The notes under the pieces are model-generated. The model made no database searches and was not told the DNA's origin. It was given only the letters and a program-made list of their open reading frames with translations. A program made the translations under genes and the position numbers. 64,000 nt of DNA from NCBI GenBank assembly GCA_018268195.1, contig JAFDWZ010000001.1:1-64000 (forward strand), written 5' to 3'. This DNA is from Bacteroidota bacterium. Lineage in GTDB: Bacteria > Bacteroidota > Bacteroidia > AKYH767-A > OLB10. Shown here one piece after another: positions 1,770 to 60,133 of the stretch (position 1 is its first letter; each line of letters opens with the position of its first letter).

Positions 1770-3301
1770 TCATTAAAAACAACTAATTTTTTATGCACAC
1801 GCTCACCATTACTTGTAATACTACAATTATAAACCCCATTTGCAACACGTGACAATGAAACACTTTGCAATGTACTCCACGGAGGGAGATTTTGCGAATA
1901 AACTACTCTGCCGTTTATATCAAAAATCTCCAACTTACCTGATTTGTTCTGCGGCAATAAATACATGATTCTGAAATTGCCATTGTTGGGATTTGGTGAA
2001 ACGGAAAACTTAAAATCATGTTCTGTTAAATCTTTCACACTCGTAAGCGTATCGCATGGGCTACCCACCAAACGACCTAAGTAGTAGTTGGGGTGGTTAG
2101 GAACCGTACCAACATTAAAACAAGGTAAGTGAATGTTGTGTAAGTTAACTGTACAGTCTATGCCTGCACTGTCAGGATAATCCATTTCATGCAAATCTAA
2201 AACACCACTTGTTGATGTAATATAAATCTTACCGTTTGCAGCAAGGTACATTAAATAAAAATTGGTGTAAAATACCGGAGGAGCGGAAAGGAATGTGTCA
2301 TTGGTGGCAACTAACTGATAAGTAGCTCCAATATTTGATGTATCAGTATTAATTTGATGAATGTGTTCAGTTGTAGCAAAATATAAATATTTTGAATTAG
2401 AAGAAAAAGCTGTTGCATAAGAAATGTTCCCGTCCGTAAAATCAATAACTGTATCTAATGAAAAAACACCTGAACACCTGTCAAAATCAAATAACTGAAC
2501 TTTTGATTGATAACTCATGCCAACAACATTACTACATGAAAAAGCAAATTTTTCACCGTCAGGTGAAAATGTTGGTTGTCCTGCAAACCCAAATGGAAAG
2601 CCTGCAATTTGCAGGTTCTGATTTCCAAAATATTGAATTGTATCGGGTGTTACTAAAAAAGTATGGGCATGAGTTGCATCGAAAGATAATACCACTACCC
2701 ACCAATCTCTACCATTAGCGTGTTTACAAGCAGCAATACCCCACCCGAATACATCTGTATGAGCAACATTATTTTTACTGATTACTTCTCCTAATCCATT
2801 ATCATGAGTAACATCTATAATACTATAATAAAAATTACTATCTATCAGAATTGGACTATTGTAATTGCACGTTTGATGAAATAATACATATTTATTTGAA
2901 TCATCAGGCATAGGTAAAATAATAGTACCGTAAGGAATAGGCAATCCATATTGATGTCCATAATCATAAGTGCATTGATTAGGGTTTAATCCACTGCCAT
3001 TTTGCATGGTATCACCTGTTGCATTAGCTATAAAATAACCATTGCTGCTGATTAATATATTTCCGTTTTCATCAGCAATGTTTGCTTGGGTGTCCATGAA
3101 AGGAATTACTCTTTGTTCACTCAATACACTATATGAATTTTGAGTAAAATTAATTCTACCTTCTGCTGACGTAGAACTATAATGGTGTCCTAACAGCCAA
3201 ACATGATTTTTACCTTGCGCAACTGCTGATTCTTTTATTACTAAAAAAAGTAATAAAAGAATCAGAATTAGTGGGGCGTTTATTTTTTTACCCTTTCTCA
3301 T
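1766..3301 (-). CDS. Secreted beta-propeller-like protein with T9SS type A sorting domain
   Basis: 511 residues. Residues 1-28 are a signal peptide (basic start, Leu/Ile core, cleavage after AVA-Q). The body has PD40/propeller-like strands, for example QPTFSPDGEKFAFS near 250 and AFSSNSKYLYFAT near 300. The last ~80 residues are a type A T9SS sorting domain: FSVSPNPNNGNF, then LEIFDINGRVV, NGVYNCSI and a basic KKLVVFNE end. It should be exported by Sec, then moved across the outer membrane by T9SS and anchored or released. The start ATG overlaps the stop of the upstream 2493-aa gene (ATGA at 3298-3301), and its own stop overlaps the next start, so the three are probably translationally coupled. 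The substrate is unknown. Confidence 0.85.
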   Translation of the reverse strand: MRKGKKINAPLILILLLLFLVIKESAVAQGKNHVWLLGHHYSSTSAEGRINFTQNSYSVLSEQRVIPFMDTQANIADENGNILISSNGYFIANATGDTMQNGSGLNPNQCTYDYGHQYGLPIPYGTIILPMPDDSNKYVLFHQTCNYNSPILIDSNFYYSIIDVTHDNGLGEVISKNNVAHTDVFGWGIAACKHANGRDWWVVVLSFDATHAHTFLVTPDTIQYFGNQNLQIAGFPFGFAGQPTFSPDGEKFAFSCSNVVGMSYQSKVQLFDFDRCSGVFSLDTVIDFTDGNISYATAFSSNSKYLYFATTEHIHQINTDTSNIGATYQLVATNDTFLSAPPVFYTNFYLMYLAANGKIYITSTSGVLDLHEMDYPDSAGIDCTVNLHNIHLPCFNVGTVPNHPNYYLGRLVGSPCDTLTSVKDLTEHDFKFSVSPNPNNGNFRIMYLLPQNKSGKLEIFDINGRVVYSQNLPPWSTLQSVSLSRVANGVYNCSITSNGERVHKKLVVFNE

Positions 3302-6300
3302 TTTACTAGTATCAATTTACTTGTTAATGATTTTTTATTGGCTGCATTTACTGTAATTGAATAAATACCGCCAGATAAATTATTTAAATGAATCAGATGT
3401 GTTTTTTCACTGCAATTAAATTCTGATTCATATACCGTCTCATTCAACACATTCCTGATTTGAATCTTGCATATTCCATCTTCTTGTCCCGTTAATTCAA
3501 CTTTTACTTTATCACTTGCAGGGTTAGGAATAATTTTTATTCCATTTTCTTCTGATTTTTCAGTTGTATTATTTGCCAGCCTGTAAACGCCACTTTGCAA
3601 ACATACATTTGCATCATCATAATCAATTGAATCATTAATTAGTGCAATAAGTGTACGTGCCCGTTCAACTGCCGCTCCTCCTGTGTAAGGACATTGCGTA
3701 GCTATTGAATATAGTTCGATGTAATTATTTCGGACAATCTCAACATCCTCGTCTCGTTCCAAATATCCTATTTCTATTTCATTAATGATTTTATTGTTTA
3801 ATTCAGGCAACTCACCATTAACAACAAGGTCATTCTTGTACTGTGCACTGTCTAAACGGTTCTGTAATATAGCCTCTCTCTGCACCTTAATATTGTTAAC
3901 CGTTTGGTTTAAAAACTCAACCGTCAATTTCCAATGATTGTAAATGCTGTCAGCATCCTGCGTTGGGTGATTTACCTTCCACGTTTCAATATTATTCATG
4001 CTGTCGGCAAATAATTTCATTTGTGAGTAGGTGTTTTCAATCAATACCATCATCGTGGAATCATACGTGTATGCAGCCTTTTTATATTCATCAGCAGCAT
4101 ACAAATTTCCGGTATTATCACTTTTATGTACAAGCATAAACTGGATGTAAATGGAATCACTAAACCATAAGGTCGAATCCTGTGCCAGCTCTTTGTAGAG
4201 GTACTCAGCAGCAATGGCTTTTGATTCTTTAGATATTTCTTCCGAATCAAAAATGCCTGAAGCAATTAATTCGCGAATGGTGGTGTCAGCCATTGCAGGT
4301 GGTTGACTTGAACATACAATAGAGTTGGAACAATAAAATGTGCTGCCTCCTTTAGTTGGATTAAACCATGAGCTTGGTGTTACTACTGGATTATAAACTG
4401 AACCCAATAAAGAATCCACATCAAAACGTGAAAGTGGAACAAAGGGATTACTTGCTAAATTCATTCCACCAAAACCACTTACGGTTGGCACATTCCATTT
4501 ATTGCCATTATGCGGCTGTATGCCCATGTAAGTAGGATTAGTGGGGCTTCCTGTGTTCAGATATAAGCCAACGTAATGCGTATTCATTTCATTACCCCTA
4601 AAAACAGTATTAGGATTAGCTCCGCCAAAGCTGAAACCTCTGTAAGTGCTGTCCACCGTGTTGCAATACATGGTTACTTTATTATTCATGTTGCCCGCAC
4701 TTATTCCGTTTGAGTTGCCTGTAATGCCTGTTGCATAATTCCCAGTAATGTTGTTGCAACTTACGGCTGAATTTTGATTTGCTGCAACTAAAATGCCGTT
4801 GCCGTTGCCATGCAGTTTAACAACATTGTATTTTATTTTAGCCGTGTTCAATGCTCCTGCATATATAGCGTGTGAGGCATTGGTTAAAGTCAATACGTTG
4901 TTGCTTGCCATATATCGCACAGGAGTTACCTGATTAAACTCACTCATCCATAAGCCATAGTTAGCCAGACTTAAACCTGTGCCATTAGCTCCATTGATGG
5001 TAATCGTATTGTTGGTTGCATACATAAACCGCGCAAAAGGATTGGTCGCCATTTTTATTCCTATGTGAGTGGCTGTAATGGTACAGTTGCTCACGGTGTT
5101 TGTACTTAACACAGGTGCACTTGTTTCTTCAACTCCGGTTCTTACATTCAATATATGTATAAAACTTGCTGTCAATTTACTCTTGTTAGTATAAATTCCC
5201 CTGTAGCAATTCTCAACTGTGTTATAGTTCAATGCTTCGGGCAGCACGGTAAGGTCGCCCGTGTGTATGTCGCCAACAGGCATTCCAACACTTACTATTG
5301 CTGTTCCTCTGTAGGGTTCGTTATAAAACGTATCGTAACCAATGTTGCTGAACTTACTTCTTTTCACTGTAACAATACTGCTTATAGCTACAATACCGGT
5401 ATTCAGTTTCTCAAACTCATTTAGGTTTGCATCACCAATAGTAGTTATCATATTGGTCATGTCTATTCCTGCTTTGGGCAGTGTGCCATGTGGTGTTTGT
5501 CCTGCATAGTCAGGTTTAAAGTTTGGGCTTTGCATTTTAAATTTACTTCCGTCCACTTTCAACGCTATGGAATTATAACCACCACCCGGGTGTACCGGTA
5601 TCTTCAGCCCTGTTACACAATCGTAAATTTCACTTTGCAGAATTTCAACCTGCGATTGGTCTAAAGCATAAATTCCAACATCAGCATTGCGGAGTATGCT
5701 TCCGTTTAGTTTTATTTTCCCCTTTGAAAGCACATTTATCCCTCTCCACATCGTGTCGCAGCTTTGCATGGTGGTGTTGTTCAGGTTTAGCACTCCGTTG
5801 CTTTGAACAATTATCTGCCCGCCTGCATTCACATACACCATGCAGTTGTTCAGTGTAAGTGTGCCGTTCACATAATATGTTCCTGCAATAAATACACTTA
5901 AATTACTTAGTGTAACGTTCCCCGAATAAGTGTTGTCTGCAAAAGTTGTATCTGTAGTAGTACATGGGTTTATAACGGTAACACAAACACTATCCTTCCA
6001 TATTGTATTAGCAGGTGAGGTAACGCTTACTGTGTTAAACAAACATCCTGTGGCAGCATTGCCAAAGTAGCCCGCTACCGTAAACGTATCACACTGCATG
6101 GAGTTAAGCGTTACACTGCCCGGCAGTGTGGAGTTGGTTTGAACAAAACCGCTTGGCAGCGCATCGGCCAACACTCCGGTTTGCGTGTTTGCGCTGTTGT
6201 TGCACACCGTGATGGTGTAAGTTACCAGGTCTGTCACTGCTGCTGCCGTATCTCTGTCTGCTGTCTTGGTTATCTGCCAGCAGTCGGCACAGGCACTCTG

Positions 6301-9300
6301 CACGCTACTCATCCTGAAAGTGCTGTTCATCATTGTTTTATTTGCATTTGCAGATACTAACTCATTACAGAAATCATGAGCAAATATAACAATATCCGGC
6401 AGTGTGGTGTCGCCCGCAAAGGTGCAGGTGGGCAGCAGGTCAAACCTAATGGTCATTATCCGGCCATTGTTGTAGCCTCCATTGGCATAACCAATCTTTT
6501 TTATGCTGTCTGCATCCGTTATCCAAACCGTATTGGTTGCTGTTGGCGTGAGTTGTGCCGATGCTGATGTGAGGTGGTTGTTGCCATAAAACATATAGGC
6601 TCCCACCACCTGCAGGTTGGGCTTGAGGTTGGTGAGCACCACCGTGTCGGGATAGAGGTAGCCGAGATATTTGCTGTTGAAGGGCGCCCACACACTCACC
6701 GTGTCGCAAAGGGTGTAGGGCGTTTCGTAATATTTCTGAGTAACGTCAAAAGCTGCCGTGTCTTTATTATAACTCAACTGAGTAAGTATATAACTGCATA
6801 TTTTGGTGCTGTCATAAGGTGCAGCAGGATAGTTGCCACAGTTCCATCCGATGTGTATGTTGAAAAATTCTTTCGAGCTGTCTATTGGGCACGACACAGG
6901 CGTGGCGCACAGGTTGCCGCTCACGCTTGCCCCTTTTGCCAGCGATGGGGTTACGGGAATGATGTTGCCTGCGGCTGCGTAAGTCTGTCCTCCTGTTTTG
7001 AAATGCCAGTTGCTAAGATGGGGAGTGCTGCCCACGATGGCAATAAACACATTGTCGGCAGCGGTTTGGCCGGAGTTGCCTGTGTTGGTGTTTTGCACGG
7101 TCAGGTTGTTCCAGCATATTGTATCGCTGCGCAGGGAAGCATTGCTGTTGTCTATGGAGGTGAGTTGCAGATGAGGGTTTATGCTCAGTGTATTAAGGCT
7201 GTTGCCCGAAGGGTTCAGCACAGGGTCATTCATGGTGCTGCATCCACTACCCGTCAGGCAGGCAGGCCATTGCGGATGGAAGGTTATTTGTGCCGCTGTG
7301 GATGCGGATGGCGTTACAGGTAGCACCATGCAACTGTCGGGAAACAACTTCAGCGATATGAAACACCGGTTTTCCTGATCCCCGATATAAAATGTGGTCG
7401 AATTGCCCGCACTGTTGTTTTGGAAAAAACAATTCATAGCAGGTAGCGCTGTGGCACTGAAAGTTACATTGCCCGAAGCATTTTCAAGAAACGACAATCC
7501 CACCGTGTCGCTTTCCATATAAACTCCGTTTACACGTACACCATTTTTGGCAACGGCATTTTTTACATGATAGCCCTGCGGAATTTGCAGGTTGAAGAAC
7601 GAAGGCTGCAACACGGGCGGTTTATACTCATAGGGGTAAATATCTATGAGGCCTTTGCCTCCGGCAATGGTGCTTCTTGATTCAACTATCATTTCTTTTT
7701 CGCAGCCTTGCTTGTTGCTGATGCTGGTATTGTTTGAAGCCATCTGACTCACAAAATAGTGAATGCTTCCGGTGGCTTCGCAGAAAAAAGCGTAACTGTT
7801 TATGAAGGCCGTGTCAACCAAATTGTTGCTCACATCGTTTGGGTCAACTGTCCATCCGAGGCTATCAAGTTTCGCTGTGGTGTTGGGTTGTTGCGGAACC
7901 AGGTCGCTCACCTTATTTTGTATTTCCCCACTGAAAAACATCCGGTTGAAAACATTGCTTTCTTTTATTACATCGTCAACCGAGTTCAGGGAGGCAGGCA
8001 TATAATTTCCGCAAACGTTATAAATTACTTTTATCCGGTAGTGTTGCCCGGGCATGAACCCCGTGAATGAACCAACGCTGTGCGTAATCAGTTGAGGATA
8101 GTCGTGCAGATTGCCCGAATAGGTGTTACTGACAGTATCGTGGTAGGTGGTAAATACAAATCGGTATTCGTTGGCAGTGGTGGTGGTGTCAATCAAAAAC
8201 TGTGACAGCAGATTGCCGCCAATGGCATATTTGCGAATGGTGGTATAGTCGTTTGCTCCCATGGAGTAAGGCTCGCAGTCCAAACATCCATTCACCGAGG
8301 GTGTGGCATCGTCCATATAAAAATAGATGCTGTCCGGATAAAGTTTCATGGTGTCTAGCCCCATAGGGATAAAACGGCTTAGCTGCAATACGTTAAAACG
8401 CAATCCCTGCTGTTGCAGTTGAGCATAGTCATAACCTCCGTTATTTCTGTCCCCATCCACAAAATTGGCTCGCATATAGTCTGCTGCCCGGTCGCCATAA
8501 CTTATATAATTCTTTTTTATTTTCGGGAATAGCTGACTACCTGCTGTAATCTGTACAAGTGGATCATCTGCCCGTCCGTCATCATCACTATCGGCAAGAC
8601 CGAAGTTTTCGCGCTGCATATAATATCGTTGTGCTATCAGCCCCGGGCTTTTGCAACCCGGGCACATGACTGCAATACGTTTTCCTCTGTCGTTCAACGG
8701 CAGCCATTGTATGTTGCCATTGAGGTTGTTAATGGCGGGAGGAATAAGGTGTGTTCCAAAGGCTCCTCCTGTGTAGTTTAATGAAAAACAGTTGTCGGTA
8801 TTAGGTAACAGATGAAACGTAGCAGAATATGGTGTAGTGGACATATCGCTGCCACAGCAGGCTTGCAGTTTGAAAATAAATTGCCCACTGTCAAGTACAT
8901 TTTTCATATCGTTCACCAATAGGTTAAAATAAAAATAATATAATGTCTTTCTGCATATTGCTAATCCAATGGTGTCTGATGTGTAATAATATTCAGGCTG
9001 ATAATAAGTTGTATCGCCAAGAGCATCGGTTTTTATAAAATAAACATCCTGCCAGGGTCTGGTGATGCGAAGATTGGTGTCGCAAAACACCGTTGCTCGC
9101 AGCCACCCGTTAAGAGTAGTGCATAAATTTTGTGGCTGGTTACATCCTAACAGTTGATATACATTGGTTGCTCCTTGCTTTACAATACCTTTAAAGTCTA
9201 TACTAAAAGTTGCTGAGTCGCCCGTTCCTGCATTAGTAACGCTCAGGTTGCTCACGGTAGGGAAGAAGTTGTTCTTCAGATAAAAATCGTAGCCTGCTCC

Positions 9301-10779
9301 TCCTGCCTGCTGCCCTGAAATGTTTTTTCCACTGATTAATCCCGTACCTGTTTGATCTACTTTGCCGCCACAGATATTTTTAGCATAAAAATTCTCTAAA
9401 GCCCATTGATTGTATTTTTTGTAGTGGTTCAGCAGTGCGGCATCGTTTTCTTCTGAGCATCTTAATGTTGTAAAACTGAAAAATACGGTGTCTTTTTCTC
9501 CGAAATTTTTTATACGAACATAGCAATGTTGCAATGCCGTGTCCACCAAATTTTTGCACAACCAGTTGCTGCGAAGTGCTATGGAGGTGTCTATAGTGCA
9601 GATGCTGTTGGCACTTTTACTTATTGCAAGTGAGTTTTTATTGATCAGCATCAGAAAAGTGGGGTCGCCATAATTATAAATGGTGGCATCTTGCACGAGA
9701 TCGAAGTTCAGGCTGTCCATAGCACCTCTGCCTTTGTTGATGATCCGATAGCTCCACAGAGTCGAGTTTGCAGTATCATTGAAACAACTGAACTCACGCA
9801 CCGCATCGGCAGGGCTTATGCGTACTACATCGGCTTGAAGCAAGTCGTTGTTGAAGAGTTTGAAATGGCAGGTATTCTTTGGCTTGCAATCATTACACAA
9901 AACGGAAGCCACAGCCTGCGGATAGTTGCAACTCCATATTAACCTTGCCGTTGCATTGCTGCATAATATACTACTCAAACACGTGCTGGAACTAACACGC
10001 TGGAGCAGTATCAGCGTGTCGTTGTTGGCAAGTGTTAGCGTGTCCGATGGCGAGTCGGTATAGTTTCGTAATATATCGTTCACTCCCTTCTGAAAAAAGA
10101 TGCTGTCGGTTGTTATTCCGTTACAATAAGTGCTATCCGTTAGAAAGCGAAACCTCAAATTTCCTCTGTCAATATTATTTTTATATACAAACTTCAAAAA
10201 TGTTTGCGTTTTGTTGGCTATATTAAATGTTGTAATTGAGTCCTGTAAAACAAGTTCCGGTTTGGTGATACCGCTTGTTTTGAAAATGTCTGTGCCATTG
10301 CCTGTATTGAAGATTATGCCGTTAGTACCTGTAAAGGTTTGATAAAAATTCACATTCTGGTTGCCGGAAATATGGCAACCTATATATGCATGATAGCTTA
10401 AGGTAATATTCGAATTGTTATTCACCGTAAAATGCAGTGTGGTTCCTCCTGTGATGTTGCCGATGGCATTATTTGGTGATGCTGAAACAAAATCAAAATA
10501 CACACTCTGACTTTGAGTACTGTTGCAGCCATTGATAGTAATACCGTCAAATGAAGGTGTTATTGTTATCTCCGTTCCTACTGTTACTCCCGAAAAACTA
10601 ATCGTGTAAAGATTTTCCAGACAAGCTCCCACTGTAGAAGGTGGCGTTACAGTAATGCTTACCGTTTGAGCCTTGCCATAAGTGAGGCTTGTGATGAGCA
10701 CAAGTATTATTAATTGTACTCTTTTACTCATGCTTGCATGAATCTTAGCCGGTTGGAATTGGTCAATCATACTTTTCAT
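3298..10779 (-). CDS. Giant secreted protein: DUF11 repeat, right-handed beta-helix, T9SS type A sorting domain
   Basis: 2493 residues. The first ATG gives a 16-residue leader before MSKRVQLIILVLITSLTYG, a good signal peptide, so the start may be ATG 10731 instead. Residues ~40-1500 are a long extracellular region of Cys- and Asn-rich beta-strand sequence that I cannot assign. About 1505-1620 is a DUF11-like repeat (ITKTADRDTAAAVTDLVTYTITVCN style). About 1620-2130 is a right-handed parallel beta-helix of the pectate-lyase fold (repeated short NNT/NGNG strands). About 2150-2410 is predicted helical. The last ~75 residues are a type A T9SS sorting domain (IKIIPNPASDKVKVEL, LSGGIYSITV, SKLILVK). 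Likely a surface adhesin or polysaccharide-interacting protein; enzymatic activity cannot be inferred. It is first of three genes joined by ATGA overlaps. Confidence 0.85.
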   Translation of the reverse strand: MKSMIDQFQPAKIHASMSKRVQLIILVLITSLTYGKAQTVSITVTPPSTVGACLENLYTISFSGVTVGTEITITPSFDGITINGCNSTQSQSVYFDFVSASPNNAIGNITGGTTLHFTVNNNSNITLSYHAYIGCHISGNQNVNFYQTFTGTNGIIFNTGNGTDIFKTSGITKPELVLQDSITTFNIANKTQTFLKFVYKNNIDRGNLRFRFLTDSTYCNGITTDSIFFQKGVNDILRNYTDSPSDTLTLANNDTLILLQRVSSSTCLSSILCSNATARLIWSCNYPQAVASVLCNDCKPKNTCHFKLFNNDLLQADVVRISPADAVREFSCFNDTANSTLWSYRIINKGRGAMDSLNFDLVQDATIYNYGDPTFLMLINKNSLAISKSANSICTIDTSIALRSNWLCKNLVDTALQHCYVRIKNFGEKDTVFFSFTTLRCSEENDAALLNHYKKYNQWALENFYAKNICGGKVDQTGTGLISGKNISGQQAGGAGYDFYLKNNFFPTVSNLSVTNAGTGDSATFSIDFKGIVKQGATNVYQLLGCNQPQNLCTTLNGWLRATVFCDTNLRITRPWQDVYFIKTDALGDTTYYQPEYYYTSDTIGLAICRKTLYYFYFNLLVNDMKNVLDSGQFIFKLQACCGSDMSTTPYSATFHLLPNTDNCFSLNYTGGAFGTHLIPPAINNLNGNIQWLPLNDRGKRIAVMCPGCKSPGLIAQRYYMQRENFGLADSDDDGRADDPLVQITAGSQLFPKIKKNYISYGDRAADYMRANFVDGDRNNGGYDYAQLQQQGLRFNVLQLSRFIPMGLDTMKLYPDSIYFYMDDATPSVNGCLDCEPYSMGANDYTTIRKYAIGGNLLSQFLIDTTTTANEYRFVFTTYHDTVSNTYSGNLHDYPQLITHSVGSFTGFMPGQHYRIKVIYNVCGNYMPASLNSVDDVIKESNVFNRMFFSGEIQNKVSDLVPQQPNTTAKLDSLGWTVDPNDVSNNLVDTAFINSYAFFCEATGSIHYFVSQMASNNTSISNKQGCEKEMIVESRSTIAGGKGLIDIYPYEYKPPVLQPSFFNLQIPQGYHVKNAVAKNGVRVNGVYMESDTVGLSFLENASGNVTFSATALPAMNCFFQNNSAGNSTTFYIGDQENRCFISLKLFPDSCMVLPVTPSASTAAQITFHPQWPACLTGSGCSTMNDPVLNPSGNSLNTLSINPHLQLTSIDNSNASLRSDTICWNNLTVQNTNTGNSGQTAADNVFIAIVGSTPHLSNWHFKTGGQTYAAAGNIIPVTPSLAKGASVSGNLCATPVSCPIDSSKEFFNIHIGWNCGNYPAAPYDSTKICSYILTQLSYNKDTAAFDVTQKYYETPYTLCDTVSVWAPFNSKYLGYLYPDTVVLTNLKPNLQVVGAYMFYGNNHLTSASAQLTPTATNTVWITDADSIKKIGYANGGYNNGRIMTIRFDLLPTCTFAGDTTLPDIVIFAHDFCNELVSANANKTMMNSTFRMSSVQSACADCWQITKTADRDTAAAVTDLVTYTITVCNNSANTQTGVLADALPSGFVQTNSTLPGSVTLNSMQCDTFTVAGYFGNAATGCLFNTVSVTSPANTIWKDSVCVTVINPCTTTDTTFADNTYSGNVTLSNLSVFIAGTYYVNGTLTLNNCMVYVNAGGQIIVQSNGVLNLNNTTMQSCDTMWRGINVLSKGKIKLNGSILRNADVGIYALDQSQVEILQSEIYDCVTGLKIPVHPGGGYNSIALKVDGSKFKMQSPNFKPDYAGQTPHGTLPKAGIDMTNMITTIGDANLNEFEKLNTGIVAISSIVTVKRSKFSNIGYDTFYNEPYRGTAIVSVGMPVGDIHTGDLTVLPEALNYNTVENCYRGIYTNKSKLTASFIHILNVRTGVEETSAPVLSTNTVSNCTITATHIGIKMATNPFARFMYATNNTITINGANGTGLSLANYGLWMSEFNQVTPVRYMASNNVLTLTNASHAIYAGALNTAKIKYNVVKLHGNGNGILVAANQNSAVSCNNITGNYATGITGNSNGISAGNMNNKVTMYCNTVDSTYRGFSFGGANPNTVFRGNEMNTHYVGLYLNTGSPTNPTYMGIQPHNGNKWNVPTVSGFGGMNLASNPFVPLSRFDVDSLLGSVYNPVVTPSSWFNPTKGGSTFYCSNSIVCSSQPPAMADTTIRELIASGIFDSEEISKESKAIAAEYLYKELAQDSTLWFSDSIYIQFMLVHKSDNTGNLYAADEYKKAAYTYDSTMMVLIENTYSQMKLFADSMNNIETWKVNHPTQDADSIYNHWKLTVEFLNQTVNNIKVQREAILQNRLDSAQYKNDLVVNGELPELNNKIINEIEIGYLERDEDVEIVRNNYIELYSIATQCPYTGGAAVERARTLIALINDSIDYDDANVCLQSGVYRLANNTTEKSEENGIKIIPNPASDKVKVELTGQEDGICKIQIRNVLNETVYESEFNCSEKTHLIHLNNLSGGIYSITVNAANKKSLTSKLILVK
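5713..6147. repeat. Direct repeat copy 2 (inside the 2493-aa gene)
   Basis: Partner of 1323-1754 in the same orientation. Recombination between the copies would delete the 511-aa gene and fuse the big gene to the truncated paralogue. The right end of identity is at the sequence gaacaaa near 6141-6147. Confidence 0.85.
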
Positions 10780-19305: not shown

Positions 19306-19357
19306 GTGAACTGTTAATGACAGACTTAGTTATTTTTTTGGCACTATTGCAATCATT

Positions 19358-19391
19358 CGTATGGTTAAATTACAACCATACGCTATATTTG
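19358..19391 (+). promoter_or_regulatory. Palindromic operator and -7 box of the XRE/S24 regulator
   Basis: A perfect 9-bp inverted repeat, CGTATGGTT (19358-19366) and AACCATACG (19374-19382), with a 7-base spacer. It is followed one base later by the -7 box TATATTTG (19384-19391). It fills the -33/-7 interval of the promoter for the gene at 19415, the expected place for an autorepressor site. Its size fits a dimeric helix-turn-helix protein. Confidence 0.75.
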
Positions 19392-19414
19392 TTACCCTCA
19401 AAAAAGCAAAAGAC

Positions 19415-20239
19415 ATGTATTTCAGTTCCAACATCAGATTACTGCGTAAACGCAAAAAACGCACTCAGGAAGTGGCTGCACTGGCATTAGGATTTTCGCG
19501 CTCCACACTTAACAGTTATGAGAACGGAGCCATCACCAACCCTACAGTGGAAGCACTGATTAATTTTTCGAATTATTTCAAAATATCAATTGACACACTG
19601 CTACGCGTGGATATGAGCAAACTTTCGGAGTTGCAACTGCGCGAACTGGAGTTGGGCTATGACTCTTATGTGCGAGGCACCAAACTGCGTGTGCTGGCTA
19701 CAACAGTTGACAGTAAGAATCGCGAAAACATTGAACTGGTACCTGCCAAAGCCAAAGCAGGATATACGGCAGGATATAACGACACAGAGTTTATACGTAG
19801 CCTCCCAACTTTCCAGCTGCCTTTTCTTTCACCTGATAAAAAATTCAGAACATTCCAAATCAGTGGCGACAGCATGCTGCCCATACCTGACAAATCGTAT
19901 GTGACGGCTGAGTTTGTTGAGAATTGGATGGAGATAAAAGATGGTAATGCTTACATCATCCTCACTCAGGATGACGGCATCGTATTTAAGGTAGTATATA
20001 ACCACATCAGCAATATGAAAAAACTATTGCTCAAATCACTGAATCCGGTTTACAAACCTTACGAAGTAAACATTAATGAAGTAAAAGAAATTTGGAGATT
20101 TGTGAATTACATCAGCAATGAGTTTCCCGAGCCGGTGACAAATAATCCCAAGCTCTCCAATACCGTTGCACGCATACAGAATGAGATGAATAAAATAAAA
20201 GACCTGCTGGGCGTGCCGCAGGAAGATGACAGAAACTAA
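19415..20239 (+). CDS. XRE helix-turn-helix / S24 self-cleaving repressor (LexA-like)
   Basis: An upstream ATG at 19361 lies inside the operator and before the promoter, so the start is ATG 19415 (274 residues). Residues ~4-60 are an XRE-type HTH (RKRKKRTQEVAALALGFSR, TLNSYENG). After a linker comes an S24/LexA peptidase domain: candidate Ala-Gly cleavage bonds at 115-116 and 119-120, Ser153 in SGDSM, Lys192 in VFKVV. These distances (34-38 and 39) closely match LexA (35 and 37), so RecA-stimulated or spontaneous self-cleavage is plausible. A helical C-terminal tail (~230-274) is extra. The next gene is recA, which suggests but does not prove a role in DNA-damage control. Confidence 0.85.
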   Translation: MYFSSNIRLLRKRKKRTQEVAALALGFSRSTLNSYENGAITNPTVEALINFSNYFKISIDTLLRVDMSKLSELQLRELELGYDSYVRGTKLRVLATTVDSKNRENIELVPAKAKAGYTAGYNDTEFIRSLPTFQLPFLSPDKKFRTFQISGDSMLPIPDKSYVTAEFVENWMEIKDGNAYIILTQDDGIVFKVVYNHISNMKKLLLKSLNPVYKPYEVNINEVKEIWRFVNYISNEFPEPVTNNPKLSNTVARIQNEMNKIKDLLGVPQEDDRN

Positions 20240-20522
20240 AGCAGATGGAAAGGTTACCTTATGCCGTAAGAACCGAAGGTGCGCTTCAACCACCCTCCCA
20301 CATTATATTTCACCGATATGACCATATTAACACCATTCATATTGGTTGCCATACAATCCATTTAATTGTTTATTTTTTTTTGTAAATCTTTATAAATCAC
20401 ACATTTTCATAGCATAAAGTAACGGTCTGGGCATTGTTGAAAACAAAATTTTAAAAAATCAAACTTTTGCTCAGCCTAAAAGCATTACTTTGTGTCATCA
20501 AAACAGATAATATTCAATAGCA

Positions 20523-21530
20523 ATGAGCACACAAGCACCCGACAAAGAGAAATTGAAAGTATTACAAGCAGCCATTGAGCGTATTGACAAAACATACGGC
20601 AAAGGAACCATCATGCGTATGGGCGAAGAAGCTGTTGAACCGGTAGAAGCTATTGAAACAGGAAGTATCACTCTTGACATTGCTCTCGGAATAAATGGTC
20701 TTCCCAAAGGACGAGTTATTGAAATATACGGACCTGAATCATCAGGTAAAACAACACTTGCCATTCATGCTATTGCCAACGTACAAAAAAACGGAGGCAT
20801 CGCTGCATATATTGATGCTGAACATGCCTTCGATCGTTTCTATGCGCAGAAACTTGGTGTGGATATTGAAAATCTCCTCATCTCGCAACCCGATAACGGT
20901 GAGCAGGCTCTTGAAATTGCCGACAATCTTATTCGCTCAGGTGCAATAGATATTATTGTTATTGACTCGGTAGCAGCCTTAACTCCTAAAAGTGAAATTG
21001 AAGGAGAAATGGGCGATTCAAAAATGGGACTGCAAGCACGCTTAATGTCTCAGGCCCTTCGTAAACTTACTGCCAGCATCAGCCGCACAAAATGTTGCTG
21101 TATATTCATCAACCAGTTGCGCGAAAAAATCGGAGTAATGTTCGGAAATCCCGAAACTACAACAGGAGGTAATGCTTTAAAATACTATTCTTCTGTTCGC
21201 CTCGATATTCGCAGAATTGGACAGATAAAAGATGCTGATCATGTGATTGGAAACCGCACCCGTGTAAAAGTTGTAAAGAACAAAGTTGCTCCTCCTTTCA
21301 GACAAGCAGAATTTGACATCATGTACGGTGAAGGAATTTCCAAAACCGGTGAATTGGTTGACCTGGGTGTAGAACTCAATATCATTAAAAAAAGCGGATC
21401 ATGGTTCAGCTATGGCGATACCAAACTCGGTCAGGGACGCGATGCCGTAAAACAATTGTTTGCCGACAACCCTGAACTGGCAGATGAAATTGAACAAAAA
21501 ATTAAAGAAACGATGCACAGTAAAGCATAA
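20523..21530 (+). CDS. recA: Recombinase RecA
   Basis: 335 residues, typical length. Walker [10 protein letters not shown] (~70-78), MAW-like IDAEHAFD, Walker [23 protein letters not shown], loop L2 region [26 protein letters not shown], and the [15 protein letters not shown] motif are all present. It forms filaments on single-stranded DNA, drives strand exchange and stimulates self-cleavage of LexA-type proteins. The 283-bp leader has imperfect matches to the neighbour's operator half-sites (ACCATA near 20320, CCATAC near 20349) but no clean palindrome. A terminator follows at 21560. Confidence 0.98.
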
Positions 21531-53230: not shown

Positions 53231-56200
53231 TTAACGCAACAGAGTTACAGTGCCATTGTAATCATGGCGCTTACCACCTTTAGTTGTTACGCTCAATGAA
53301 TAAACATAGGTTCCCTGAGGTGCTAACCCTCCTCTTCCATCACTTCCATCCCATGGACTTGAAGGCGAATCAGATTGATACAACATCTGACCCCAACGAT
53401 TGAAGATTCTTAATTTGAATCCTGAATAATCCATATTAAATCCGGGATCAAAGAATACTTCATTTCGCCCGTCATTATTAGGAGTAAATGCATTAGGCAA
53501 CCAGAATGGATTTACTACAATTGTTTGCTCTGCTGAGTCAACACATCCGGAAATATTCTCTACAATCAGCTTAACAGGAAACTCTCCAATGTCAGAAAAA
53601 TAATGTGAAACATTTTGTTCAAAAAGTGTGTCACCTAATCCGAACACCCATTTCCAGTTCACAGCATAATCAGATTCATCGGTAAACTGAACCGGGCCAC
53701 TGTAGATATTAGTCATCATTGGATCGGCCTTGAACTTAGCAACTGGTAGCGGATAGAAAAACACCGGAACATTCTTGATTAATGAATCTGTACACCCAAA
53801 AGGATTTGCAACAACTAACTTAATGGGGTATGTTCCGGGAACAGAGAACACCAATGAAGGATTTACCATATTGGAGAATACGCTATCGCCCACGCTCCAC
53901 TGGAATGTAGCACCTGGCTGAGAGATAGTCTGACTAAAGAAATGAATATTGGTAATTTCGCATGTCCTGCTGGTATCGTTTGTAAAACTAACTACCGGGT
54001 ATGGATGTGCTATAAATGCAAATGCAGGTGATGTCTTTTTACATCCGTTGGCATCCGTTACTTCTACGGTATAGTTGCCTGTTTGATTCACTGTAAGTGT
54101 ACTTGCAGAACTGTTATTAGACCAGAGATAAGATGTATATGGCAACGTGGTTGACAATACAGAATTTGCACCTTCGCACACGGCACTTACACCTGTAATC
54201 ACCGGTTGTGGCAATGGATTAACGGTTATAGTTGCCATACCACTCATCTGGGTTCCGGGACAGTTTTTATCATTGATAGAAGTAAGTGAATAAGTGGAAG
54301 TCGTTGTTGGACTTAAACCAAGTAACAATGGATTCTGAGAAGTAGTTGCTGTGGTTGACTGACCTGTAACATTATCTAAATAAGTATAAGTAAACGGAGC
54401 CTCACCGGTAAACTGCAACTGTATTTGCGCAGTCTCGTTAAGACAAATAACCGGTGATCCAGAAATCACAGCCTGTGGTAAGTCATGTACAGCTACAGTA
54501 GTACTTCCAGTAGCATTGGTTTTACAGCCATACAAACCGGTTACCACTCCTGAAAGACTGTAAGTAGTAGTGGTAGCAGGTGTGACAGGAATAGTTACTG
54601 AAGGTGTGTTTGAAGCTACAGGATAATTAGTAGTACCATCTGAATAAGTTACTGCATAAGGACCATTTGCAGTAAAGTTTAGAGTAATAGACCCTGAATT
54701 TCCATTACACAATGATGGTGTTGCAGTAGTAATAGCTACAGTAGGATTATCAAGTACGGTGATTGCTACATTCTGATTAATGGTGGCAGGACAATTGGCA
54801 TCGTTTATAGTAGCCAGAGTATAGTTGGTGGTACTTTGAGGTGCAACATAAAACGAATAGTTACTGTTTGATGTATTCACTGTGCTTCCGCCCTGCATTT
54901 GGAAAGTATAGGGAGCAACACCTGTAAAATGTATTGATAATTGTGTGCTGTCGCCTTTACAGAGTGTGTCACTACCTGTTGTTATTACTGCCTGAGGAAT
55001 TGCATTTACACTTACAACCGCACTTCCTGAAGAAGGGCCTGCACATCCATTGCCAGTAATCGTTGCAGGCAAGGTATAAATCGTTGTTGAAGCAGGCGAA
55101 ACTGGAATGGTTACAGATGGCGAATTTGTAGTAAACGGACCATTGGAATTTCCTCCTGCAAGATAACTATAGCTATAAGGAGCTTCTCCTGTAAAGTTAA
55201 TCGTTAAGTTAGTTGAGCTTCCTGCACAAATAGCTGTAGTGCCTGTTAATGTTGCTCCCGGAGTTGGAACCACACGTACATATACAGACTGATTAACGGC
55301 ACTATTAGTACAGTTTGCATCACTTACATTAACCCCTAAAGCATAAGTTGAATTTACAGAAGGTGATATCGGAATAGTTGCTGTATTACTTGGTGATGAC
55401 AAAGCACCTGAAGTAACTCCATTGGTAAGATAAGTATAATCAAATGGAGGTGTTCCCGTAAATTGTATTGCCAACGAAGTAGAACTGCCGAAACATATTG
55501 TATCATTTCCTGTAAGTATGGCTGTTGGTATTTCATTTACTTTAACCGATGCAGCACCGGTCATAGCTGTACCTGTACAATTATTATCTGAAATCGAAAC
55601 AGGTGTGTAAGTTGTCAATCCAACAGGTGGAGTAACTGATACTATCAAAGGATTGTTGCTGGTAGTACCACTCACATTTGCAGTGCCGTTAAAATAAGTA
55701 TAATTATATGGTGCTGTTCCTGTAAATGAAATATTAAAGTTAGCTGATACACCATCACAAACTGTAGAGTTTCCACCCAATACCATAGTAGGTAATGGAT
55801 TTACAACTATCTGTGTTGTTACAGGATTTACTGGCGCACTACAACCTAATAATCCGGTAACATTTCCGGTAAGTGAATAGGTTGTTGTACCGGTAGGCGG
55901 AGTAACAGATATGGTTGTTGAATTAGTACTGCTGTTAACTCCATTGGATATGGATCCATTAGAATATGTAGTAGTAAATGGTCCTACACCTGTAAAGTTT
56001 ATTGTAATGCTTCCACTCTGTCCTATACAAAGTTTTGGTGTAGTAGTGGAAATTACTGCTGAAGGTAATGGCAGCACTGTAACTTTTACTCCTTGGTTCA
56101 TGTTGCTTGTACACAACTGGTCGCTCACCTTTATCAATGTATAATTAATTGTAGAAGCCGGTGAAACAGGAATTACCTGTGGATTGGAAGCTGCCGTTTG

Positions 56201-59200
56201 CACTCCCTGTCCTGCCAGTTGATAGCTGAAAGGAGCAGTACCTGTAAATTGAATACTCAGATTGGTGGAGCCTCCGCTGCAAATTGAATCAGAAGCAGTG
56301 CTGATAACAGCTGTGGGCAATGGACGCACAGTTATAGCTCCCAACCCACTCACACTACCTTTACATACTCCACTAAATACAGAGTCGAGCTGGAAGGTTG
56401 TAGTTGAAGTGGGACTTAGCACCAATTTATAAGGATTGTTTGATGTAGTTACCGGTCCATAAGTATTTCCTAAACCGTCTTTATAAAAGAAAGTCCAAGG
56501 TGCAGCACCGGCATTGAAATTTACCAATAACGTGTCTTGAGCTCCTGTACAAATAGTTTTATTACCACTGATAACGGCTTGAGGTAAGGTGCTTACTGTA
56601 ACCACTGCTGTTGCAGGATTAGTTGTATTGGCACATTTTGCATCGCTGATGGTTGTGCCAAGGCTATAAGTTGTAGTTGCACCCGGAGTTACATTAACCG
56701 TATATGGATTTAATGAAGTATTAAAGTTGATAGTACTACCGGGAGTTGCAACATAGCTTCCAATGAAAGGTCCGGTACCTGTGAAATTAATAGTCAAAGT
56801 TGAAGATTGACCTGCACAAATAGTATTTGTACCTGAAAGAACTGCTGTAGGCAGCGGATTCACCGTTACTCTAACCGTATCATTAATACCTGAACGCGAA
56901 CAGTACTTATCCGATACAGTGGTTACAATATAATTGGTACTTGCCAAAGGATGAACGTAGAAGTAATATGGGTTGGTAGCTGCATTGGTATTTACAACAC
57001 CTCCTGAATTAGTCACTAAACCATAAGTATAAGGAGCACCATTGCCCGTGAAACTTACCTGCATCCTCACACTGTCGTTCAAACAAATTACCGGGTTGGT
57101 AACAGCACTGATATTGGCATTAGGAATAACTCGAACTGTAACTGTAACTGAATTGGCTACTGAACCCGGACACGCCTTTGCCGAACTGGTAAAGTTCACA
57201 AATGTATATGTAGTGGTTGTGGTAGGTGAAACATTGAGAGTAGTAAATGCTGCATTGGTATTTACAGGAGTAAGAGTGTTAGTAGTATTATCACGAATGT
57301 TACCAACATAAGGTGGTGTACCTGTAAAATTAACACGAATGGTTGCAGATGAGCCTACACAAATAGTATCGTTACCTGTTATTGACATAGTTGCTGTTGG
57401 AACTGGGTTAACAACAATTTTTCTGCTTCCAGAAACCGTGCCTGTACATGCATCTGCAACACTCACCAAGGCATAGGTGGTGGTTGAGGCAGGCGTTACA
57501 TTTAATAACAATGGATTAGAAGGTGTAGTTCCTGAGATATTAGGACCTGTAGAACTACTTATAACATAACTCCACGGACCTGTGCCTGTGAAATTTATGG
57601 TAAGTGTAGAACTTCCTCCTGTACATATGGTATCGTTGGAAGTTATACCGATGACTGCAGTAGGTTTTGGAGCAACGGTAACATTTGCAGTACCTGAAAC
57701 AATTCCCGGACAACCTGCTGTAACAGTTGTTAGCGTATAACCATAATTGCAGTTAACAGGAACGCGGACAACAAAAGGAGTACTATTCGCAACAGCATTA
57801 ACTACTGTATTTCCAACACATCCCGGACCTGGAACATTATAACTGAAATTCCATGGTGGTGCTCCTGTAAAAGAAAACTGAAGATTTATACTATCGCCCA
57901 AACAAGCACTTGAAGAACCTGATACTGCAATTGTAGCAGTAGGTGCTTGCGTAACAGTTACATTAATCGTTGATGTAGTGCTCGTACAACCACTTGGTGA
58001 TTGTGTAATAGTAGCATTATAAGCACCTGTTGCGCAGGCGTTGATAGTTGAAGTTGTTGCTCCTGTATTCCATGAATAATTGTATGTAAAACATGGATTA
58101 TTGGGTGACGGGGAAGCAGTCAAAGGAACACATTGCCCCTGACATACATTGGTTGGTCCACTTGCGCTGATGTTTGCAGTGAAACTATTATTAACAGCAA
58201 TAGAAAAATGGTTGGAATTGGATGTACAAGGTAATGCATCACCTATGCTTACCCAATATTCTATATTTCCGGTACAAATAGTTGTTGAAAAGGGATCTGT
58301 AAATGTTGTTGGTCCTGCTCGTGGAATTGTTGTCACCAATACAGGTGGAGAGCCGGACGGGTACGATCGGTAAAGATTATAATTTGCCGATGCCGATGGC
58401 GGATATGGTCCGGTAAACAATGAATTCCAACTAAGTTGTATTCCACAATTGTTAACACCACTCAAATACATTGTTCTGATCAGATTAGACTGGGTTGACA
58501 AAGAATCAACTCCACAAGTTGATTTTGTCTTCACATAAAAATATATTGATTGATTCGCTGCATTTGCTCCTATTAAAGCTGTAAGGCTGGAGCCAAGAAT
58601 GGTATCTCCCTTTTGCTGATAATGATTCCCTTTTACACTATCAACGAGTGTAAATGGTCCTCCCTGATTGGTAGAAGCATAAATGTAATATGCGTTGAAA
58701 ATATTATGTGTATCAATCGGCATAGGAGGATTCCAATAAAGTCCCACATCTCCTGCAGGATTAAGTACCGTAGCACCTCTGACATCTGGCGCTTTCAGAG
58801 CTATTGGTGGCTCAACGGTAATGGAAATAGTTATTGTATTAATTGCAGGTGCAGGACAATAATCGTCCTGTGCCTTGACAATAAAGTAATACGTATTCCT
58901 TCCTCTGATACAACCTGAAGGCGCAAGTATGTGATTACAATTTGTGACCCAGGTAAACTGAATAAAATTGGCAATAGGTGAAACGGATGGCAACAATTTA
59001 TTCAGGTAAGCACAAGGGGGATACTGACAGCCACCATCTGTGTTTATTGGAGTACCGAACTGATCACTGTAGGCCTCAATTCTGATATTCTGAAAACTTC
59101 CCGAGCCGATGTTCTTTTGAAAATCTGTAGCATCAATCCTGAATCGGACCGTATCTCCTGCAAAAACTGTAGTATCCTTTGAAGTTCCTCCTGCAAAAGG

Positions 59201-60133
59201 AAGATTGATTGCCGGTGGTAGATTTATAGTGGGTGGATTCTGAACAAAACAGTTGGTAGTTAATACAACTCCGTAATCTCTGTATATTTCAGCAACCTTA
59301 ACCCCACATTTGTAAGATGTAACTTTAATACATGTTGCAAAATTCCCTGTTGTGCCCGCAGCCGTAGTAACAAAAAAGTTAACCTCACCTGATAAATTAT
59401 TCATGGTAACATTTCCGGGCAATTGATTATTTACAGAGTAAGGAGCTGAGAAATTAATTGCCGAGGCATTAAAAGCCGCAGGTGGAGATGATGTCGGCTG
59501 GTCAATAGGATTGGCCCATTCACTTCTAAGAGAATCCAAATCACTGTCAACCGCTGTTGGGTTATAGGTATATGGGTAACCAATGCAGATATAGGTATTG
59601 GGGCGCTCTTTGAAATAAGGCGAGGAGTCGTAACACGGGTTCATGTTTAATCCCAGATACGGATACATTGTTGCCCTGATGGTGAATCCCTGACCGCCAC
59701 CTCCTAAATTCACTAATGAATTGCGGCAGCAATCGTCAATGGCAAAAGTCCAACCCGTAGCAGGTGGTGTACCGTTCAGGAATACCGGATTTGTTTTCAT
59801 AACATACTCCTGTATTGCACCGGCACTTGGGCTTGCACAGGTAAATCCACAATTGGGAGGACTCAGGTCATTAATTTGCGTTAAGGCTGCATTAATGGGA
59901 ATAGATGTCAATCCAGGATTTCCATACACCGCCAAGCTGGAAGGTGGGGAAAATGGAATTCCCTGACAATCTCTGTATGCCTTAATGGTAAACTGAAACT
60001 TGCCCGCATCAGGTCCTGACTGAATACATGTCCATGTGATTTCGCCTCCGAATAAATGAGAGGCCTTAGCGCCTACCGTTGACAACATCAACAGTATCAC
60101 TAGTAAGTAAAGTTTTCGATTCATAGCTTTCAT
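53231..60133 (-). CDS. Giant repeat adhesin with gliding-motility-type (T9SS type B) C-terminal domain
   Basis: 2300 residues. Signal peptide 1-24. Residues ~25-300 are the SHLFGGEITW... domain typical of large Bacteroidota surface proteins (AYRDCQG). Fibronectin-like pieces follow (~430-680). From ~730 to ~1975 there are about 14 tandem units of ~89 residues (see repeat feature). Two PKD domains lie ~2045-2210, then the CHU_C-type C-terminal domain (LPNAFTPNNDGRNEVF, FNRWGQMLYQS, PQGTYVYSLSV). It should be exported through T9SS with PorP/SprF-type help and act as a surface filament in adhesion or gliding; no catalytic domain is seen. Confidence 0.9.
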   Translation of the reverse strand: MKAMNRKLYLLVILLMLSTVGAKASHLFGGEITWTCIQSGPDAGKFQFTIKAYRDCQGIPFSPPSSLAVYGNPGLTSIPINAALTQINDLSPPNCGFTCASPSAGAIQEYVMKTNPVFLNGTPPATGWTFAIDDCCRNSLVNLGGGGQGFTIRATMYPYLGLNMNPCYDSSPYFKERPNTYICIGYPYTYNPTAVDSDLDSLRSEWANPIDQPTSSPPAAFNASAINFSAPYSVNNQLPGNVTMNNLSGEVNFFVTTAAGTTGNFATCIKVTSYKCGVKVAEIYRDYGVVLTTNCFVQNPPTINLPPAINLPFAGGTSKDTTVFAGDTVRFRIDATDFQKNIGSGSFQNIRIEAYSDQFGTPINTDGGCQYPPCAYLNKLLPSVSPIANFIQFTWVTNCNHILAPSGCIRGRNTYYFIVKAQDDYCPAPAINTITISITVEPPIALKAPDVRGATVLNPAGDVGLYWNPPMPIDTHNIFNAYYIYASTNQGGPFTLVDSVKGNHYQQKGDTILGSSLTALIGANAANQSIYFYVKTKSTCGVDSLSTQSNLIRTMYLSGVNNCGIQLSWNSLFTGPYPPSASANYNLYRSYPSGSPPVLVTTIPRAGPTTFTDPFSTTICTGNIEYWVSIGDALPCTSNSNHFSIAVNNSFTANISASGPTNVCQGQCVPLTASPSPNNPCFTYNYSWNTGATTSTINACATGAYNATITQSPSGCTSTTSTINVTVTQAPTATIAVSGSSSACLGDSINLQFSFTGAPPWNFSYNVPGPGCVGNTVVNAVANSTPFVVRVPVNCNYGYTLTTVTAGCPGIVSGTANVTVAPKPTAVIGITSNDTICTGGSSTLTINFTGTGPWSYVISSSTGPNISGTTPSNPLLLNVTPASTTTYALVSVADACTGTVSGSRKIVVNPVPTATMSITGNDTICVGSSATIRVNFTGTPPYVGNIRDNTTNTLTPVNTNAAFTTLNVSPTTTTTYTFVNFTSSAKACPGSVANSVTVTVRVIPNANISAVTNPVICLNDSVRMQVSFTGNGAPYTYGLVTNSGGVVNTNAATNPYYFYVHPLASTNYIVTTVSDKYCSRSGINDTVRVTVNPLPTAVLSGTNTICAGQSSTLTINFTGTGPFIGSYVATPGSTINFNTSLNPYTVNVTPGATTTYSLGTTISDAKCANTTNPATAVVTVSTLPQAVISGNKTICTGAQDTLLVNFNAGAAPWTFFYKDGLGNTYGPVTTSNNPYKLVLSPTSTTTFQLDSVFSGVCKGSVSGLGAITVRPLPTAVISTASDSICSGGSTNLSIQFTGTAPFSYQLAGQGVQTAASNPQVIPVSPASTINYTLIKVSDQLCTSNMNQGVKVTVLPLPSAVISTTTPKLCIGQSGSITINFTGVGPFTTTYSNGSISNGVNSSTNSTTISVTPPTGTTTYSLTGNVTGLLGCSAPVNPVTTQIVVNPLPTMVLGGNSTVCDGVSANFNISFTGTAPYNYTYFNGTANVSGTTSNNPLIVSVTPPVGLTTYTPVSISDNNCTGTAMTGAASVKVNEIPTAILTGNDTICFGSSTSLAIQFTGTPPFDYTYLTNGVTSGALSSPSNTATIPISPSVNSTYALGVNVSDANCTNSAVNQSVYVRVVPTPGATLTGTTAICAGSSTNLTINFTGEAPYSYSYLAGGNSNGPFTTNSPSVTIPVSPASTTIYTLPATITGNGCAGPSSGSAVVSVNAIPQAVITTGSDTLCKGDSTQLSIHFTGVAPYTFQMQGGSTVNTSNSNYSFYVAPQSTTNYTLATINDANCPATINQNVAITVLDNPTVAITTATPSLCNGNSGSITLNFTANGPYAVTYSDGTTNYPVASNTPSVTIPVTPATTTTYSLSGVVTGLYGCKTNATGSTTVAVHDLPQAVISGSPVICLNETAQIQLQFTGEAPFTYTYLDNVTGQSTTATTSQNPLLLGLSPTTTSTYSLTSINDKNCPGTQMSGMATITVNPLPQPVITGVSAVCEGANSVLSTTLPYTSYLWSNNSSASTLTVNQTGNYTVEVTDANGCKKTSPAFAFIAHPYPVVSFTNDTSRTCEITNIHFFSQTISQPGATFQWSVGDSVFSNMVNPSLVFSVPGTYPIKLVVANPFGCTDSLIKNVPVFFYPLPVAKFKADPMMTNIYSGPVQFTDESDYAVNWKWVFGLGDTLFEQNVSHYFSDIGEFPVKLIVENISGCVDSAEQTIVVNPFWLPNAFTPNNDGRNEVFFDPGFNMDYSGFKLRIFNRWGQMLYQSDSPSSPWDGSDGRGGLAPQGTYVYSLSVTTKGGKRHDYNGTVTLLR
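54210..57940 (-). repeat. About 14 tandem ~89-aa units in the giant adhesin
   Basis: Each unit begins P-T-A-x-I/L-S-x(4-8)-I-C-x-G-x-S-x-x-L-x-I-x-F-T-G-x-x-P-F/W-x-Y, then has N-P-x(3)-V-x-P and T-T-Y-x-L, and closes near D-x-x-C. One Cys pair per unit (first near ICxG, second near the end) may make a disulphide. Copies vary widely in sequence, so they arose by old duplications. A 15th partial unit (PQPVITGVSAVCEG) ends the array. Confidence 0.8.

What the first reader, a model, noticed from the sequence alone, without database searches (positions are those of the whole stretch)
19358..20239. LexA-like autorepressor with a clean operator beside recA
Seen: a perfect 9-bp inverted repeat with 7-bp spacer fills the promoter of an XRE/S24 protein whose Ala-Gly bond, Ser153 and Lys192 have LexA-like spacing. 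Known: S24 proteins of this design self-cleave with RecA help. Inferred: a damage response in a phylum in which canonical LexA is often missing. The regulator lies immediately upstream of recA, and the operator overlaps the -33/-7 region.
Basis: partly seen in the sequence, partly recalled or inferred. Interest (0 to 1): 0.7.

Follow-up and report, generated by a model that had tools for sequence, protein, structure and literature searches.

The report
LexA-like SOS repressor with new operator
This bacterium, from a phylum that lacks the textbook LexA protein, probably switches its DNA-repair genes on and off with a phage-like substitute that binds a previously unreported DNA signal in front of itself, recA and an error-prone DNA polymerase.

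Summary
A perfect 9-bp inverted repeat (19358-19382) lies in the promoter of an XRE/S24 protein whose true start is 19415, directly upstream of recA. The interpretation (LexA-like autorepressor of a damage response) is supported by sequence evidence, but the operator was misdrawn. In this genome the unit lies at the regulator (19340 and 19363), recA (20344) and the only Y-family polymerase operon, dinB-dnaE (contig C4), which a blind genome-wide tandem search also found. In related genomes, 13/21 recA and 15/19 dinB promoters carry it (shuffles: about 0.2). In 54 of 80 named orthologs the regulator is near a divergent dinB. Ala115-Gly116, Ser153 and Lys192 are invariant. This genome has no canonical LexA and no other S24 protein. 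Non-canonical Bacteroidetes LexA proteins were published in 2021 with motifs CTAA-N5-TTAG and GGA-N5-TCC; this protein falls in a separate, well-supported clade with a third motif, which includes Bacteroidales, an order reported to lack both known groups. It is a new variant of a known kind. Binding, cleavage and damage induction are untested.

The parts
19415..20239 (+). XRE/S24 regulator gene, non-canonical LexA, 274 aa; HTH residues 7-62, scissile Ala115-Gly116, Ser153 and Lys192 dyad, extra C-terminal helix 245-264
   Evidence: Pfam HTH_3 4.6e-13 and Peptidase_S24 7.9e-8; invariant residues; AlphaFold model and PDB fold search
19363..19377 (.).
   Evidence: PWM 15.5 bits, best in window (this site was among the 13 used to build the matrix); the GRTT-N7-AAYC register is recovered de novo from 80 ortholog promoters; retained in genus
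19340..19354 (.). Second tandem operator O2, GGCACTATTGCAATC, 23 bp centre-to-centre from O1
   Evidence: PWM 10.5; found in the blind genome-wide tandem search; AATC-N8-GATT enriched de novo, 15 of 80 against 0.5
19384..19391 (+). Bacteroidetes-type -7 promoter element TATATTTG of the regulator
   Evidence: Sequence match; alignment of four genomes of the genus; inferred, no transcription data
20344..20358 (.). recA operator GGTTGCCATACAATC, 165-179 nt upstream of the recA start codon
   Evidence: PWM 14.2, second best in the window and not used to build the PWM; a site at -180 also in the three other genomes of the genus, including G022 where regulator and recA are not adjacent
20523..21530 (+). 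recA, predicted co-protease and regulon member
   Evidence: TIGR02012 7.3e-173

Best explanation
The gene encodes the SOS repressor of this bacterium, a non-canonical (CI-type HTH plus S24) LexA. Dimers bind TGRTT-N7-AAYCA operators, usually as a tandem pair 23 bp apart, over its own promoter, upstream of recA, and at the dinB-dnaE translesion operon, and repress them. After DNA damage, RecA-ssDNA filaments would trigger self-cleavage at Ala115-Gly116 by Ser153/Lys192 and release the regulon. Shown here by computation: domain make-up, invariant catalytic residues, operator conservation, target genes, absence of LexA and of other S24 proteins, clade position. Inferred from characterised relatives: DNA binding, repression, RecA-stimulated cleavage and damage induction.
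For: Regulator promoters: 39 of 80 named orthologs have a site of at least 12 bits, dinucleotide-shuffle mean 0.7. De novo gapped-palindrome enumeration ranks TTGA-N11-TCAA, TGAT-N9-ATCA and GATT-N7-AATC (one register) first, and recovers the published CTAA-N5-TTAG and GGA-N5-TCC in the control clades. Targets not used to build the matrix: recA 13/21 (null 0.16) and dinB 15/19 (null 0.24). A blind tandem search of the own genome gives 5 places (control 3), of which two are the regulator and dinB promoters; in G021 and G023 hits also abut dinB. dinB is divergent near the regulator in 54/80 loci and a dnaE-like gene is present in 34/80. Ala-Gly, Ser, Lys are invariant in the 44-sequence alignment, with spacings 38 and 39 in the orthologs measured. 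No LexA_DNA_bind hit, a single Peptidase_S24 hit and a single Y-family polymerase in the genome. The C-terminal domain matches LexA at 2.3-2.8 A. A relative in the sister lineage (Elizabethkingia-like L161 carries the exact published TTACAAATTGTAA) was shown to bind its operator and to be mitomycin-inducible (PMC8565304).
Against: No binding, cleavage or expression data. About half of the named orthologs lack a strict GRYT-N7-ARYC site within 300 bp: some have an intervening gene or an uncertain start, some appear to use variants such as GACG-N7-AGTC. No recA site was found in seven family genomes. In this genus the recA site lies 165-180 nt upstream of the start codon, with another promoter-like sequence nearer, so its effect on recA is uncertain. 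Single sites elsewhere in the genome are near background (55 against 40), so the regulon looks small. Sequences are related, so counts overstate independence.
Confidence: 0.85

Rival explanations
1. A local polymerase-switch repressor: the protein controls only itself and dinB-dnaE (an HdiR- or UmuDAb-like minimal regulon), and the recA site is a relic or weak.
For: dinB adjacency dominates across the clade; other genome hits are near background; the recA site is far upstream in this genus.
Against: recA sites occur in 13/21 family genomes, several at -38 to -66 where a promoter would lie; in G022 the -180 site persists although recA and the regulator are apart.
Confidence: 0.3
2. A prophage or mobile-element CI repressor that happens to lie beside recA.
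For: HTH and S24 parts resemble phage repressors (PHROG 4, 1.6e-20).
Against: Single-copy homolog in 20 of 24 family genomes; neighbours are housekeeping genes (EVE-domain protein, formyltransferase, recA); operators lie at recA and at dinB on another contig.
Confidence: 0.03
3. The 9-bp inverted repeat is a chance or structural feature and the protein is a non-cleaving stress regulator.
For: The full palindrome is unique in the genome and its outer arms are not kept even within the genus.
Against: The inner unit is conserved in register, spacing and target genes; catalytic residues are invariant.
Confidence: 0.04

Closest known systems
Bacteroidetes non-canonical LexA, CTAA-N5-TTAG group (Pontibacter actiniarum WP_025606010.1; PMC8565304)
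   Same: CI-type HTH plus S24 domain, Ala-Gly/Ser/Lys, extra C-terminal helix, operator in own promoter, recA and translesion targets; about 35-45% identity to CTAA-promoter homologs found here
   Different: Operator differs (GRTT-N7-AAYC, 15-19 bp, against CTAA-N5-TTAG, 13 bp); recognition-helix region differs (RSTLNSYE or RSTLSGYE against RSLIGSYE); separate clade (UFBoot/SH-aLRT 99/99)
Elizabethkingia anophelis SOS regulator WP_078407279.1 (TTAC-N5-GTAA; PMC8565304)
   Same: Divergent next to an error-prone polymerase; its lineage groups with this clade in the tree (99/97)
   Different: Different operator (TTACAAATTGTAA in L161); its lineage is sampled here only from other families of the class
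Bacteroidetes non-canonical LexA, GGA-N5-TCC group (Salegentibacter agarivorans WP_075324850.1; PMC8565304)
   Same: dinB-dnaE is the main published target; S24 architecture
   Different: Distant outgroup in the tree, different HTH sequence and operator
Canonical LexA (E. coli; winged HTH, CTGT-N8-ACAG)
   Same: S24 C-terminal domain fold (about 2.3-2.8 A), catalytic residues, regulon logic
   Different: CI-like rather than winged HTH; no PF01726 match in the genome

Membership tests
Bacteroidetes non-canonical LexA (Sanchez-Osuna et al. 2021) | CI-type multi-helical HTH plus S24 peptidase domain | tested here: met
   HTH_3 and Peptidase_S24 above cut-offs; model N-terminus matches SinR/P22 C2, C-terminus matches LexA
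Bacteroidetes non-canonical LexA (Sanchez-Osuna et al. 2021) | Ala-Gly bond and Ser-Lys dyad | tested here: met
   A115-G116, S153, K192 invariant in 44 aligned sequences; spacing 38 and 39 in orthologs
Bacteroidetes non-canonical LexA (Sanchez-Osuna et al. 2021) | Phylogenetic placement with published groups | tested here: met
   Same tree as CTAA- and TTAC-promoter homologs, as a distinct clade; groups identified by promoter motif, since the published accessions themselves could not be fetched
Bacteroidetes non-canonical LexA (Sanchez-Osuna et al. 2021) | Own operator motif CTAA-N5-TTAG or GGA-N5-TCC | tested here: not met
   1/80 and 0/80 ortholog promoters against 0.8 and 2.4 in shuffles; GRYT-N7-ARYC 41/80 against 4.1. 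Hence filed as a new variant, not as a member of either published motif group
SOS repressor (functional definition) | Operators at own gene, recA and error-prone polymerase | tested here: met
SOS repressor (functional definition) | RecA-stimulated self-cleavage and damage induction | not testable with these tools
   Needs bench work
Canonical LexA | Winged-helix LexA_DNA_bind domain (PF01726) | tested here: not met
   No match in the own genome while 10 control genomes ring

The most novel reading that the evidence does not exclude
A third, previously undescribed specificity class of Bacteroidota LexA (TGRTT-N7-AAYCA, tandem 23-bp operators) governs a recA + dinB-dnaE SOS response across many uncultured and environmental lineages, including members of Bacteroidales, an order in which both known SOS-regulator groups were reported absent.
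Probability: 0.65. Interest if true: 0.6.

Novelty: new variant of a known kind. Interest (0 to 1): 0.5.

Why it matters
It fills a gap left by the 2021 study: Bacteroidetes clades without either known SOS regulator. It gives a new LexA-type operator with a defined register and spacing, names the target genes, and makes damage-inducible mutagenesis in these lineages directly testable. It also offers a case of operator switching within one repressor family: G010, in the same taxonomic family, carries a CTAA-type regulator instead.

Tried and rejected
The whole-palindrome genome search gave no second site; this is explained by the outer arms not being conserved. The single-site genome pattern is near background (55 against 40), and the four 1-mismatch hits all lie inside genes. 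A strong site before a zapA-like operon in G022 looked like a cell-division link, but it is absent from the other three genomes of the genus and was dropped. Loci from the genome search with minus-strand matches are not reoriented; the first footprint was partly wrong for that reason and was redone. Supplementary tables of PMC8565304 could not be read; some of these orthologs or palindromes may be listed there.

Full report
Observation. The repeat CGTATGGTT-N7-AACCATACG is exact at 19358-19382 and unique in the window and, at up to 2 mismatches, in the 3.0-Mb genome. The gene behind it starts at ATG 19415 (orthologs), giving a 274-aa protein with an HTH_3 domain and a Peptidase_S24 domain. recA follows at 20523.

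Operator anatomy. Promoters of orthologs from the same taxonomic family, once correctly oriented, showed a shared 15-bp unit rather than the 9-bp arms. A position matrix from 13 regulator-promoter sites put two places in the 64-kb window on top: the regulator promoter (15.5 bits, a training site) and, not used in building the matrix, a site before recA at 20344 (14.2 bits). A second regulator site lies at 19340. In an enumeration of all four-base gapped palindromes over 80 named ortholog promoters, the three strongest are TTGA-N11-TCAA, TGAT-N9-ATCA and GATT-N7-AATC, one and the same register; AATC-N8-GATT, the tandem arrangement, is also among the top five. The same method returned the published CTAA-N5-TTAG and GGA-N5-TCC motifs from homologs of those groups, which serves as a positive control.

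Targets. The only Y-family polymerase gene in the genome is dinB, followed by a DNA polymerase III alpha gene. Its start is preceded by GGTTATATTGTAGCC and GATTGTGATGTAAAC, 23 bp apart. A tandem-pattern search that knew nothing of genes gave five places in this genome against three for the control; two of them are the regulator and dinB promoters, and the other three lie inside genes. In G021 and G023 the corresponding hits abut dinB exactly. Over family genomes, 13 of 21 recA and 15 of 19 dinB upstream regions hold a site of at least 12 bits; dinucleotide shuffles average 0.16 and 0.24. In the genus the recA site is kept near -180, even in G022 where recA is not beside the regulator, so it belongs to recA rather than to the tail of the regulator gene.

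Context in relatives. In 54 of 80 named loci a divergent dinB lies near the regulator, and 34 of 80 loci hold a dnaE-like gene. The regulator-recA adjacency is a local feature of this genus.

Protein. Ala115, Gly116, Ser153 and Lys192 are invariant in 44 aligned sequences, with constant spacing in orthologs. The AlphaFold model (mean pLDDT 70.6; the linker is poor) has a helical HTH, the S24 fold and a C-terminal helix at 245-264. Its C-terminal domain matches LexA structures, including LexA on RecA filaments, and its HTH matches SinR and P22 C2. The genome has no LexA_DNA_bind domain and no other S24 protein.

Relation to what is known. PMC8565304 (2021) described non-canonical LexA proteins in the Bacteroidetes with two motifs, plus a diverged TTAC-N5-GTAA site in Elizabethkingia, and reported both groups absent from Bacteroidales. 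Homologs with each of these promoter motifs were found here. In trees, the window's protein lies in a clade (99/99) distinct from the CTAA group, closer to the dinB-adjacent lineage that holds the Elizabethkingia-like sequence (99/97). The published motifs are not enriched in its orthologs. Its orthologs include loci named as Bacteroidales (12 of 24 with a site of at least 12 bits within 400 bp) and Marinilabiliales (3 of 4), although names of metagenome-assembled genomes are approximate. The GRTT-N7-AAYC motif does not appear in the main text of that paper; its supplements were not readable. Two further literature searches found no later description.

Limits. No experiment is available. Related sequences inflate counts. 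About half of the named orthologs lack a strict site, and subclades seem to have drifted motifs. The regulon beyond three operons is undetermined.

Noticed in passing
L074, L087, L081, L118 (rumen/gut Bacteroidales) and L071, L077, L080 (Vicingaceae/Cryomorphaceae), regulator promoters: Apparent drifted operator variants, e.g. GACG-N7-AGTC and GACAATATTAATGTC, in place of GATT-N7-AATC.
   Followed up: partly
L182, L153-L155, L161 regulator promoters: The dinB-adjacent sister lineage shows varied palindromes (e.g. TGATACAAATTGTATCA) just after the -7 box, with no single shared motif.
   Followed up: partly
L023 (G010, same taxonomic family as the window): This genome carries a CTAA-N5-TTAG-type regulator with two CTAA sites instead of the GATT-type one, a possible regulator replacement. 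It is 88% complete.
   Followed up: no
L248 1628-1665 (G022 contig C86): A strong operator-like site (GGTTGTAATACAGTC, 17.4 bits) before a coiled-coil gene and a ZapA-like gene; not conserved in the three other genomes of the genus.
   Followed up: yes
G000:C4:11572-11609 (L188, L190): The tandem dinB operators abut the annotated ATG directly in four genomes, so dinB may have a very short or no leader, or start further downstream.
   Followed up: no
window 3298-10779 (-) and 53231-60133 (-): Two very long ORFs (2493 and 2300 aa) in the window, not examined.
   Followed up: no
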